NCBI GenBank assembly: GCA_002841625.1
Contig: PHAG01000001.1
Coordinates: 1-64,000 of the forward strand
Length of the DNA: 64,000 nt
Reading direction: 5' to 3'
Source of the DNA: Firmicutes bacterium HGW-Firmicutes-1
GTDB lineage: Bacteria; Bacillota; Clostridia; Lachnospirales; Vallitaleaceae
Shown: in pieces, positions 1 to 42,353 of the stretch
Layout: each line of letters opens with the position of its first letter
Position numbering within the stretch: the stretch's first letter is position 1
The notes under the pieces: model-generated
What the model was told of the DNA's origin: nothing
Database searches by the model: none
Seen by the model: the letters and a program-made list of their open reading frames with translations, nothing else
Translations under genes and position numbers: made by a program

Positions 1-52
1 ACTTATCAGAAAAAATGCTTTTATCGACAGTCAGCGCACCAACTATAACTGG
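1..52 (+). repeat. Right end of nested-hairpin repeat element, copy R1 (cut by window edge)
   Basis: The first 30 bases match the 3' outer stem of the two complete copies at 11922-12159 and 25485-25749, including the run GAAAAAATGCTTTT followed by ATCGACAG. After it comes a copy-specific hairpin, GCACCA-actataac-TGGTGC, and a T-rich stretch. The rest of the element lies outside the window. It sits downstream of the MutS-like operon. Confidence 0.75.
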
Positions 53-99
53 TGCTTATGTTTTGGATTTATTGGGACATTTTCACAAATAATTGACAG

Positions 100-144
100 A
101 AAAAAATAAAAGGAATTCATATCTATCTAAACAAATACAATTCC
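100..144 (-). terminator. Probable terminator of the MutS-like operon
   Basis: On the minus strand GGAATT (139-144) can pair with AATTCC (112-117), followed by a TTTTATTTTTTT tract at 100-111. The stem is short and the loop is long, so the call rests mainly on the U-tract and on its position just after the last ORF. Confidence 0.5.
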
Positions 145-3495: not shown

Positions 3496-3545
3496 CACAA
3501 AAAAGCTGACAACATCTACGGTTTTCACGTAGAAGCCATCAGCTG
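3496..3545 (-). terminator. Terminator of the fluoride operon
   Basis: On the minus strand AGCTGA...TCTACG pairs with CGTAGA...TCAGCT across a short loop and is followed directly by TTTTTTG. This is a strong intrinsic terminator downstream of the DUF190 gene. It isolates the crcB operon from the MutS-like pair. Confidence 0.85.
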
Positions 3546-3566
3546 TCATCAGCATTTCGGATTTTC

Positions 3567-3589
3567 CAAAGGGGAGCTTCATCCCTTTG
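3567..3589. other. Hairpin downstream of the DUF190 gene
   Basis: CAAAGGG (3567-3573) pairs with CCCTTTG (3583-3589) across a nine-base loop. On the minus strand only a short A-rich run follows, so it is not a textbook terminator. It lies between the DUF190 stop and the main terminator and may protect the transcript end. Confidence 0.4.
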
Positions 3590-3638
3590 AAGTAGTATAC
3601 CATTATTTTTTAATGTCTGCAATAATAAATTGGTCAGT

Positions 3639-4888: not shown

Positions 4889-4932
4889 AAAAAAATAATA
4901 ACCCCAACAAAAACATATAGCCCTTGTAGGAG
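4889..4932 (-). terminator. Riboswitch-controlled terminator ahead of crcB
   Basis: On the minus strand CTCCTACAA (4924-4932) pairs with TTGTTGGGG (4902-4910) with one mismatch. A TTATTATTTTTTT tract follows. The 5' arm of this hairpin is the conserved 3' strand of the fluoride aptamer, so ligand binding and termination exclude each other, as expected for a genetic ON switch. Confidence 0.8.
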
Positions 4933-4974
4933 TCATTAGCAATCAGCACTTAAAGGCGAACTCCATCGCCTAAT
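4914..4974 (-). promoter_or_regulatory. Fluoride riboswitch (crcB motif)
   Basis: Minus-strand sequence reads GGCGATGGAGTTCGCC, then a short linker, GCTGAT, and TGACTCCTAC. These are the conserved parts of the crcB-motif aptamer in the right order and spacing. It sits 40-100 bases ahead of the first crcB. Fluoride with Mg2+ is the known ligand of the class. Bound aptamer would hold CTCCTAC and prevent the overlapping terminator, switching on the channel genes. Confidence 0.95.
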
Positions 4975-4988
4975 AACATACATCAAGT

Positions 4989-4997: not shown

Positions 4998-5123
4998 TAG
5001 CTTTTCAATTATTGCCATATTTATTTTAACCTTTAAAAAATCGTTTTATCAACTAACTAGTTTAAAAAACATTGACAAAGCAAATAATATCGATTAATTT
5101 AAATATATAAGTTAATACTCCAA

Positions 5124-5190
5124 GGTGATGATGTCCACCTTAATTATCTCATTAGAGATTGATGACTTCTGCATAATAGGCAGAGGTTTT
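5124..5190 (+). promoter_or_regulatory. Leader with two hairpins and a terminator, ahead of a hypothetical gene
   Basis: AAGGTG pairs with CACCTT across eight bases near 5123-5142. Then CTTCTGC (5166-5172) pairs with GCAGAGG (5180-5186) across a seven-base loop and is followed by TTTTTTT. The second hairpin is a convincing intrinsic terminator placed upstream of a gene. The arrangement looks like an attenuator or riboswitch leader, but it matches no aptamer class I recognise. Confidence 0.5.
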
Positions 5191-11914: not shown

Positions 11915-11921
11915 GTAAACA

Positions 11922-12159
11922 AACAACCTGGGCGTTCTTTCGAACGCTCAGGTTGTTGACAATTTAATTAATTATCAATTAACGAAACAGAGATAAAAGC
12001 ATTTTTTCTTCGAAATTAATACGAAAGGCAGTAAGTGTTCATTTTTCGCCTGACCGGCCGAAGGGTAAGGCCAGAAAAATGAACACTTACTGCCAATAAT
12101 GTATACACCTATCTGAAAAAATGCTTTTGTCGACAGCCCGAGCGTTCTTTTGAACTCTC
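11922..12159 (+). repeat. Nested-hairpin repeat element, complete copy R2
   Basis: Left hairpin AACAACCT-variable stem-AGGTTGTT (11922-11957). Then an outer stem GATAAAAGCATTTTTTC (11992-12008) that pairs with GAAAAAATGCTTTTGTC (12115-12131). Inside is a 22-bp inner stem from GGCAGTAAGTGTTC to GAACACTTACTGCC (12027-12094) capped by a GGCC-rich loop. A second copy-specific hairpin, GAGCGTTC-tt-GAACTCTC, closes the right end (12140-12159), echoing the left variable stem. There is no ORF. It lies between the end of acpP and rnc. Confidence 0.85.
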
Positions 12160-25484: not shown

Positions 25485-25749
25485 GGCAACGACTATATAT
25501 GGTCATATGGTCAATACACCAGACTGTCGACAAAAGCATTTTTTCTGATAAGTATATTCATTATTAGGAAGTAAGTGTTCATTTTTCTGGCCTTACCCTT
25601 CGGCCGGTCTAGCGAAAAATGAACACTTACTTCCTTTGGTATTAATCTTGAGGAAAAATGCTTTTATCTCTGTTTCGTTAATTGATAATTAATTTCATGG
25701 TAAACAACCTAAGGCATTGACTATGTATGGTCAATGCCTTAGGTTGTTT
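25485..25749 (-). repeat. Nested-hairpin repeat element, complete copy R3
   Basis: Same structure as R2 in reverse orientation. The AACAACCT hairpin at 25703-25748 has a copy-specific stem AAGGCATTGAC. The outer stem TAAAAGCATTTTT lies at 25648-25665 against 25531-25546, and the inner stem is GGAAGTAAGTGTTC...GAACACTTACTTCC (25567-25634). In R2 the matching inner bases are GGCAG/CTGCC, so C-G has become A-T on both sides. The far end (25485-25517) carries GACTATATATGGTC, resembling the copy-specific stem. It fills the space between two convergent genes. Confidence 0.85.
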
Positions 25750-42261: not shown

Positions 42262-42353
42262 AAACTCCCTTTCGGTGGCTAGGCTGCCATTTTAATAAGG
42301 CCCTTTAGCTTTGCGTCCCAACCTTTCGATTGGTTTGCCATTATCGTTGAAAG
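42262..42353 (-). promoter_or_regulatory. Cyclic-di-GMP-I riboswitch (GEMM)
   Basis: Minus-strand hallmarks in order: ATGGCAAACC, a GAAA tetraloop hairpin (CCAATCGAAAGGTTGG), GGGACGCAAAGC, then the second helix with GGGCC...GGCAGCC and the closing CCGAAAG strand of P1. A GGGAGTTTTTTG tract directly follows, so a terminator as expression platform is likely. The class binds cyclic di-GMP. It precedes pilC-pilA and the rest of the pilus operon. Confidence 0.94.

What the first reader, a model, noticed from the sequence alone, without database searches (positions are those of the whole stretch)
11922..12159. Nested-hairpin repeat family (R1-R3) with a covarying base pair
Two complete copies, at 11922-12159 and in reverse orientation at 25485-25749, and a cut copy at 1-52 share one layout: an AACAACCT/AGGTTGTT hairpin, a TTAATTATCAATTAA spacer, an outer stem with TAAAAGCATTTTT and a 22-bp inner stem with a GGCC-rich cap. 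The inner stem differs between copies as GGCAG/CTGCC versus GGAAG/CTTCC. The change is matched on both sides, so pairing is kept while sequence changes. That points to selection for a folded RNA or cruciform. No ORF lies inside. Candidate roles are a non-autonomous mobile element, a structured small RNA or a dispersed regulatory element; I match it to no named family.
Basis: partly seen in the sequence, partly recalled or inferred. Interest (0 to 1): 0.72.

Follow-up and report, generated by a model that had tools for sequence, protein, structure and literature searches.

The report
Terminator-seeking mobile repeat carrying older hairpin
A roughly 195-base parasitic DNA repeat that lands in hairpins at the ends of genes has carried along a separate folded hairpin, whose tip is conserved in related bacteria while its stem changes from place to place and mostly stays paired.

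Summary
(1) The repeat is a ~194-bp non-autonomous element with imperfect terminal inverted repeats TCAGGTTGTTGACAA/TCAGACTGTCGACAA, at 41 or more places in the window's genome. Relatives link such ends to IS1182-family transposases; one intact IS1182 element and three other insertions show exact, flush 19-29-bp duplications of a whole hairpin, whereas the known member IS1272 is reported to delete it. No IS1182 transposase was found in the window's genome. (2) The inner hairpin is a separate module, also found without these ends here and in 12 of 145 other genomes searched. Its head (G-NNN-GACCG...AAGGC) is constant; its ~21-bp stem differs between loci but pairs 96% (shuffles 57%). Half-steps are strand-biased in old copies (G.U 32, A.C 5), not in young ones (3:3), and orthologous stems in one genus are partly broken. 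No Rfam family matches. Function unknown; I favour recognition as a folded single strand, with templated palindrome correction as a serious rival.

The parts
11930..11949 (+). left copy of the target hairpin, GGGCGTTCTTTCGAACGCTC (overlaps the first two bases of the element end)
   Evidence: local alignment with the right flank, GCGTTCTTTYGAAC 13/14, next to both element ends
11921..11929 (+). AAACAACCT outside the element; complementary to the element end AGGTTGTT, present in 3 of 49 copies
11948..11962 (+). left terminal inverted repeat TCAGGTTGTTGACAA
11963..11994 (+). AT-rich spacer with TTAATTATCAATTAA, then CGAAACAGAGAT
   Evidence: alignment of copies
11995..12008 (+). outer stem, 5' arm AAAAGCATTTTTTC
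   Evidence: folding and alignment
12027..12047 (+). inner hairpin module, 5' arm of 21 bases
12048..12073 (+). conserved head of the module, GCCTGACCGGCCGAAGGGTAAGGCCA
   Evidence: head shared with hairpins of other genera
12074..12094 (+). inner hairpin module, 3' arm
12115..12128 (+). outer stem, 3' arm GAAAAAATGCTTTT
12127..12141 (+). right terminal inverted repeat (TCGGGCTGTCGACAA on the minus strand)
12140..12159 (+). right, decayed copy of the target hairpin, GAGCGTTCTTTTGAACTCTC
25711..25740 (-). second copy: target hairpin copy AAGGCATTGACCATACATAGTCAATGCCTT at the element's left end
25519..25712 (-). second copy of the element (left end TTAGGTTGTTTACCA altered, right end TGTCGACAGTCTGG)
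25567..25633 (-). second copy: inner hairpin module with GGAAG/CTTCC stem base
   Evidence: 95.5 bits
25485..25517 (-). second copy: decayed direct repeat of the target hairpin at the right end
   Evidence: score 16; 99th percentile of mismatched flank pairs 11
1..37 (+). right end of a further copy, cut by the contig edge; same sequence as the end of contig C9

Best explanation
Layer 1 (well supported): the repeat is a MITE-like, non-autonomous element of the IS1182 type. A transposase acting in trans on the TCAG(G/A)(T/C)TGT(T/C)GACAA ends (inferred) inserts it at the foot of a terminator-like stem-loop. Both strands are joined at the 5' feet of the hairpin and repair copies it (inferred), so a complete hairpin ends up on each side (seen). 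In this genome the left copy tends to stay paired more than the right one. No such transposase was found in the window's genome, so the copies look like remnants of past activity. Layer 2 (shown as a pattern, function inferred): the inner hairpin is an independent, older module that the element has captured. It has a constant head and a stem of about 21 bp that drifts in sequence and mostly keeps its pairing, lies between genes, mostly behind the end of a gene on the other strand, and also occurs without these element ends. I think it is most likely recognised as a folded single strand (RNA or single-stranded DNA) in one orientation by a factor acting in trans. It would behave like a REP-type dispersed palindrome, and IS1182-type and other nested repeats would have carried it further.
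For: Layer 1: 41 BLAST places; common ends and direct repeats of hairpins. Exact flush whole-hairpin duplications: 23 bp around an intact IS1182 element in G032, 29 bp at two G010 contig ends, 27 bp around an apparently split IS1182 copy in G051, 19 bp around a 312-bp cousin element in the window's genome. The G032 transposase is IS1182 family (NF033551, 417 bits, cut-off 270). A decayed IS1182 gene in same-family genome G019 is bounded by ends 2 mismatches from the element's, and a fragment in G002 lies beside TCAGACTGTAGACAAA. Layer 2: model matches in 13 of 146 genomes, own included; head pattern 120 times in 10 of 10 genomes, backwards control 0. 77 distinct arm pairs found by head alone pair 96.0% against 57.4% for shuffles (max 63.7). 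G.U 32 against A.C 5 in 72 distinct stems. 98 of 99 lie outside ORFs of 80 aa or more; convergent 37 against divergent 3. Some orthologous sites have fully compensated stems.
Against: Layer 1: only 9 of 26 two-ended copies have a flank repeat at or above the 99th percentile of mismatched flanks; no IS1182 gene was found in the window's genome; the ends of the intact G032 element differ from the element's by 3 bases; the hairpins beside the decayed G019 element differ from each other; the inside of the G010 insertion is not assembled and no transposase was found there. Layer 2: among 43 comparable copies in this genome one-sided changes are 3 G.U, 3 A.C and 1 A.G, with no strand bias, and 8 double changes, which fits templated correction without selection. 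In 72 old stems there are also 22 other mismatches. In genus g8, 13 of 17 comparisons of hairpins beside orthologous genes show 1 to 5 broken pairs, some at the inner end where the register is uncertain, so pairing is not kept everywhere. In 75 of 99 cases the next gene downstream of the head lies on the opposite strand, which does not suit a simple mRNA 3'-end role. The 99 are not independent (arrays, orthologues). No partner protein was identified; there were no transcript data.
Confidence: 0.7

Rival explanations
1. The inner hairpin is kept paired not by selection but by replication: strand-switching copies one arm from the other (quasi-palindrome correction), so a mutation in one arm is often written into the other. 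The module would be a passive, self-correcting palindrome.
For: In 43 comparable copies of this genome double, compensated stem changes (8 copies, 4 types: GGAAG/CTTCC 2, GTATTC/GAATAC 3, GTACG/CGTAC 2, GCAAG/CTTGC 1) are about as frequent as one-sided ones (7). Orthologous loci such as L114/L281 show double changes, some of them transversions, with few intermediates. Broken pairs at orthologous g8 sites speak against strong selection there.
Against: It does not explain the strand bias of half-steps in old stems (32 G.U to 5 A.C), the constant head across genera, the nearly constant stem length in the two genera searched by head or the bias towards gene ends.
Confidence: 0.33
2. The module is a cis-acting transcription or mRNA 3'-end element (terminator, stability hairpin or barrier to antisense transcription) selected at gene ends.
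For: 98 of 99 lie outside ORFs of 80 aa or more, often within tens of bases of the end of an opposing gene; convergent pairs outnumber divergent ones 37 to 3; the flank on the 5' side of the stem is A-rich, so the opposing gene's transcript would read a hairpin followed by U.
Against: The half-step bias favours the strand antisense to the nearest downstream gene. Many copies have no T run. Paralogous copies share heads within a genus and tandem arrays exist, which suggests copying rather than only cis selection. The gene-end bias could come from insertion alone.
Confidence: 0.25
3. The whole ~194-bp repeat is one dispersed structured RNA gene or regulatory element, not a mobile element.
For: It folds far better than shuffles and its inner stem covaries.
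Against: Sharp ends with inverted repeats, duplicated targets, nested and truncated copies, and the inner hairpin occurring without the rest.
Confidence: 0.05
4. The ends belong to another transposase family (or a lost one) and the IS1182 association in relatives is coincidental.
For: No IS1182 gene was found in the window's genome; end identity to the intact G032 element is imperfect.
Against: IS1182-type genes lie between or beside such ends, with the same unusual hairpin target, in G032, G051, G019 and G002.
Confidence: 0.12

Closest known systems
IS1272 / IS1182-family insertion sequences (PMC4923244, PMC5678879)
   Same: transposase family of the intact relative; terminal inverted repeats (16 bp in IS1272); insertion at stem-loops, several of them terminators, without primary-sequence specificity
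   Different: IS1272 is reported to replace or delete the stem-loop without target duplication; here the whole stem-loop is duplicated. PMC5678879 drew this outcome as a hypothetical pathway b; my ten literature searches listed no report of an observed case
MITEs of prokaryotes
   Same: short, no ORF, terminal inverted repeats, many copies, mobilised in trans (inferred)
   Different: carries a conserved module that also occurs outside it and in at least one other nested repeat
REP / palindromic units mobilised by RAYT transposases (recalled)
   Same: dispersed intergenic palindromes biased to gene ends, paired and arrayed copies
   Different: here the tip is constant and the stem free to drift; no RAYT gene was looked for
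Rfam structured RNA families
   Same: covarying stem with conserved unpaired bases in the head
   Different: no Rfam family matched the hairpins at gathering score; on them only weak microRNA-precursor matches below the gathering scores appeared

Membership tests
IS1182-type non-autonomous element (MITE) | terminal inverted repeats like those of an IS1182-family element | tested here: met
   ends of a decayed IS1182 copy in G019 differ by 2 bases, those of intact G032 by 3
IS1182-type non-autonomous element (MITE) | same target choice (terminator-like or palindromic hairpin) | tested here: met
   exact duplications; in this genome 9 of 26 copies have a clear flank repeat, left flank folds below the 5% control level in 10 of 26 copies and right flank in 4 of 26
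IS1182-type non-autonomous element (MITE) | no transposase ORF inside | tested here: met
   longest open stretch 60 codons
IS1182-type non-autonomous element (MITE) | cognate transposase in the same genome | tested here: not met
   no DUF772 match in G000, none to the G032 transposase; genome 98.96% complete. A non-autonomous relic can outlive its partner
IS1272 mode of insertion | hairpin deleted, no target duplication | tested here: not met
   whole-hairpin duplications of 23, 29, 27 and 19 bp, flush with both ends
Structured RNA family | covariation beyond chance | tested here: met
   and part of the comparisons; mutational templating is not excluded, and g8 orthologues have broken pairs
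Structured RNA family | strand-specific tolerance of G.U | tested here: inconclusive
   32:5 in old copies (19:5 as distinct events), 3:3 in young copies
Structured RNA family | transcribed | not testable with these tools
   no expression data
REP / RAYT system | linked or co-occurring Y1 transposase | not tested
Any Rfam 15 family | match at gathering score over the hairpins | tested here: not met
   (window and 26 loci)

The most novel reading that the evidence does not exclude
The inner module is a new class of dispersed genetic element: a constant folded head on a drifting, mostly paired stem of about 21 bp, recognised as a single strand by an unknown factor that copies or uses it, and spread in one bacterial family both alone and as cargo of unrelated terminator-seeking and other nested repeats.
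Probability: 0.27. Interest if true: 0.85.

Novelty: new variant of a known kind. Interest (0 to 1): 0.6.

Why it matters
The insertion data give observed cases of an outcome that I found only as a hypothesis for IS1182-type elements: duplication of an entire stem-loop, which would leave a terminator on both sides and make insertion mild for the host. Separately, a hairpin family with a conserved tip and a drifting but mostly paired stem, in up to dozens of copies per genome and partly at orthologous sites, is a natural test bed for a general question: when does covariation mean RNA selection, and when does it mean that DNA replication repairs palindromes? Covariation alone is often taken as proof of RNA function; here the two readings could be separated by the strand bias of half-steps.

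Tried and rejected
IS66 ends: the inner stem starts GTAAG like (recalled) IS66 ends, but a pattern scan of 7 IS66 loci of relatives showed no such ends; wider stretches fetched for it were not examined. Mimicry of a 23S rRNA helix: suggested by GACCG...GGAAAGG; in the G016 rRNA region the model's best match was one unrelated hairpin read on both strands (17.6 and 16.8 bits), with nothing at the 23S site; dropped. Phage, plasmid or viral spread: no match for the element in plasmids, for one hairpin of genus g3 in phages or plasmids, or for two head patterns in viral contigs (each covers only one subtype). Spread over the class: 1 of 391 genomes, the window's own, at E <= 1e-4 with the stricter filters. 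Model R1 also missed G009, which has 12 head matches, so negative genomes are not proven empty. The end pattern has chance matches: its control also hit 11 of 31 genomes, once or twice each, so single matches there mean little; I used only places with hairpins, repeats or IS1182 genes.

Data dropped: one search aligned 45 of the 49 dissimilar hairpins (L231, L282, L258 and L251 left out for divergent heads), and allowed a one-base choice of register at each end, so its 98.4% is flattering; the head-only set has no exclusions. The G.U/A.C count leaves out L285, L287, L333, L305 and L350, whose arms do not zip or shift register; over positions 1-19 of all 99 hairpins it is 48 G.U, 13 A.C and 52 other mismatches. 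In one search (66 model-selected hairpins) it is 61, 4 and 22, but the model itself favours G.U. One search leaves out 6 of 49 (2 solo hairpins, 4 with truncated or shifted arms). The grand total is not used because some loci appear in two registers.

Literature: searches. Read: passages of PMC4923244; passages and part 1 of the Discussion of PMC5678879. All others were seen as search listings only. MITE, REP, RAYT, IS66 ends, quasi-palindrome correction and rRNA motifs are partly from recall. 'Terminator-like' is by eye (hairpin with A and T runs) and by folding; the terminator scan tool was not used.

Full report
What is there. A search of the window's own genome (3.95 Mb, 33 contigs, 98.96% complete) with copy 1 gives 41 places in forward register; of the other 42 listed matches 41 are the palindrome read backwards and one is a further partial place. 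The tool scored 40 of 84 first-look candidates, so 41 is a lower bound. Oriented and compared, the copies share one block of about 194 bp that begins TCAGGTTGTTGACAATTTAATTAATTATCAATTAACGAAACAGAG and ends TTGTCGACAGTCTGA. The two ends are imperfect inverted repeats of each other. Of 49 places with the hairpin cap in the stretches I held, 26 have both ends at 185-199 bp; the others are truncated, nested, decayed or solo.

What flanks it. Just outside both ends there is often a stem-loop that differs from copy to copy. In the best cases the same stem-loop is on both sides: in L002, GATGTTGGATAAACCCAACATC with an A run before the left copy and a T run after the right copy, one base different. By local alignment, 9 of 26 two-ended copies have a flank repeat at or above the 99th percentile of mismatched flank pairs, and 17 do not; the left flank folds below the 5% control level in 10 of 26 and the right in 4 of 26. 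So in this genome the duplications are mostly old or lost. Copy 1 of the window has one (13 of 14 bases, next to both ends), and copy 2 a longer decayed one. AACAACCT itself stands before 3 of 49 copies.

Which mobile element. A 16-base end pattern with at most one mismatch occurs in 11 of 31 genomes including the window's own, though the backwards control also hits 11 of 31 once or twice each; what counts is that many of the matches stand right after a terminator-like hairpin. In G032 the neighbouring ORF is an IS1182-family transposase (NF033551, 417 bits, cut-off 270; Pfam DUF772 and DDE domains). That element is intact, has ends TCAGTCTGTCAA, and has an exact 23-bp copy of the hairpin CCGCCGCATTATAAATGCGGCGG on each side. 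Three more cases are exact and flush: 27 bp in G051, where an apparently split copy matches the transposase on both contigs; 29 bp at two G010 contig ends that stop in the end motif, where the inside is not assembled and no transposase was found; and 19 bp around a 312-bp cousin in the window's genome. In same-family genome G019 a decayed IS1182 gene lies between ends that are 2 bases from the element's, but its two flanking hairpins differ from each other. No IS1182 transposase was found in the window's genome. The repeat is thus best read as a stranded non-autonomous IS1182-type element.

Comparison with known IS1182 behaviour. For IS1272 and TnSha1 two papers report insertion at stem-loops, several of them terminators, with deletion of the stem-loop and no target duplication (PMC4923244, passages; PMC5678879, passages and Discussion part 1; the latter also reports some non-hairpin targets). 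The second paper draws, as an alternative, joining at the 5' feet of the stem-loop, which would duplicate it whole. The cases above have that outcome. I saw no report of it in the listings.

The inner hairpin is something else. Its head and stem also occur in another genus, outside the element. A covariance model from 26 hairpins (12 of 25 pairs with changes on both sides) finds 53 in the window's genome, of which 6 lie outside the element (C3:193873, C13:94012, C9:109505, C17:16647, C8:269456, C8:288018), and matches in 13 of 146 genomes including the window's own: G001, G003, G008, G012, G013, G016, G017, G019, G020, G021, G055 and, with a single weak match, G022. The sequences show a head, roughly G-NNN-GACCG-N-(short paired tip)-(T/A)AAGGC with variants in genus g8, on stems that differ strongly between loci. 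A search with the head alone gives 120 matches in 10 of 10 genomes of two genera, and none for the pattern read backwards.

Pairing. In 99 head-defined hairpins pairing runs about 21-23 bp and then stops, except in L285, L287, L305 and L333, which break or shift register; in G055 the stem goes on further. In the 77 with distinct arms 96.0% of the positions pair, against 57.4% (max 63.7%) when arms are exchanged between loci. In 45 dissimilar hairpins the 5' arms are only 45% identical on average but 98.4% pair (caveats under Tried and rejected). At sites with orthologous neighbours some stems have changed on both sides: L114 against L281 (neighbour protein 77% identical over 304 aa), 4 double changes, 1 one-sided kept, none broken; L021 against L280 (84% and 83%), 8 double changes in ungapped register, perhaps fewer if one base pair was inserted; L288 against L313, 3 double; L318 against L349, 2 double. 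Against this, L297 and L314 differ by one broken pair; L223/L234, L236/L296, L301/L317, L310/L317, L310/L348 and L317/L348 are identical; and in genus g8 13 of 17 comparisons beside orthologous genes have 1 to 5 broken pairs, some at the inner end where the register is uncertain. Pairing is thus widely but not universally kept.

Selection or replication? Half-steps separate the readings. In 72 distinct old stems there are 32 G.U and 5 A.C when read in the direction of the head, besides 22 other mismatches (19, 5 and 17 as distinct events; binomial p for G.U against A.C 7e-6 and 0.007). A duplex or cruciform has no such direction; a folded RNA or single-stranded DNA has. But in 43 comparable copies of this genome it is 3 to 3, and double changes (8 copies, 4 types) match single ones (7) in number, which is what templated correction of one arm from the other would give. 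I think both may operate: correction makes stems drift together, and selection on the single strand filters what persists.

Context. Of 99 head-defined hairpins (not independent: arrays and orthologues are included) 98 lie outside ORFs of at least 80 aa. Flanking gene directions relative to the head are +/- 37, -/- 36, +/+ 16, -/+ 3, and 7 with one side unknown. So the module avoids divergent promoter regions (37 against 3, p 2e-8), and in 75 of 99 the next gene downstream of the head is on the opposite strand and ends towards it. In G021 it forms arrays with 152-255-base spacing. Four copies in the window's genome (L243-L245 and a diverged L246) sit inside a different nested repeat with its own outer stem, around TTATGAACTGAAGAG. 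This shows that more than one kind of repeat carries the module.

Verdict. The finding is real. The 194-bp unit is a terminator-seeking, non-autonomous IS1182-type element: an ordinary kind, with an unusual whole-hairpin duplication. The inner hairpin is a dispersed module without an Rfam match, conserved in its head over several genera and mostly paired in a changing stem. Its function is not known, and the main open issue is whether its covariation reflects single-strand function or palindrome correction.

Noticed in passing
window 3523-3595 (-), 4920-4979 (-), 5115-5178 (+): Three fluoride riboswitches within 1.7 kb, next to several small ORFs.
   Followed up: no
window 42270-42348 (-): A c-di-GMP-I-GGC riboswitch.
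   Followed up: no
L074 about 2220-2350, L075 about 1805-1930, L076 about 1750-1880, L115 about 900-1020, L134 from 1501: A second hairpin family with the same TGTCGACAAA start and TTTGTCTC(T/G)G or TTTATCTCTG end but a different head (GACAAAGAGG..TATAC stem); in L115 inside a 312-bp element with an exact hairpin duplication.
   Followed up: partly
window 1-100; G000 C9 end; C17 end (L112): Contigs C1, C9 and C17 end in the repeat: the palindrome breaks the assembly, and window 2-98 duplicates the C9 end in reverse.
   Followed up: yes
window 38-130; L077, L079, L082, L111, L112: Several copies share long flanks (GGTGCTTATGTTTTGGATTTATTGGGACATTTT... on one side, GGACATAATC... on the other in some), as if the element had been copied inside a larger repeat.
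   Followed up: no
L279, L298, L331, L332 (G021): Tandem arrays of the hairpin module with start-to-start spacings of 152-167, 195-196, 234 and 255 bases.
   Followed up: partly
L243, L244, L245, L246: Nested repeats with outer stem AAGATGCACTGTTATGAACTGAAGAG (diverged in L246) carrying the module; possibly another non-autonomous element of unknown family.
   Followed up: partly
L122 1501 onward; other G032 places: Ends TCAGACTGTCGAAAAA or TCAGATTGTCGAAAAA at 7 places in G032, each of the 5 looked at directly behind a hairpin; at L122 the end points away from the IS1182 gene and its hairpin is shared with that element.
   Followed up: partly
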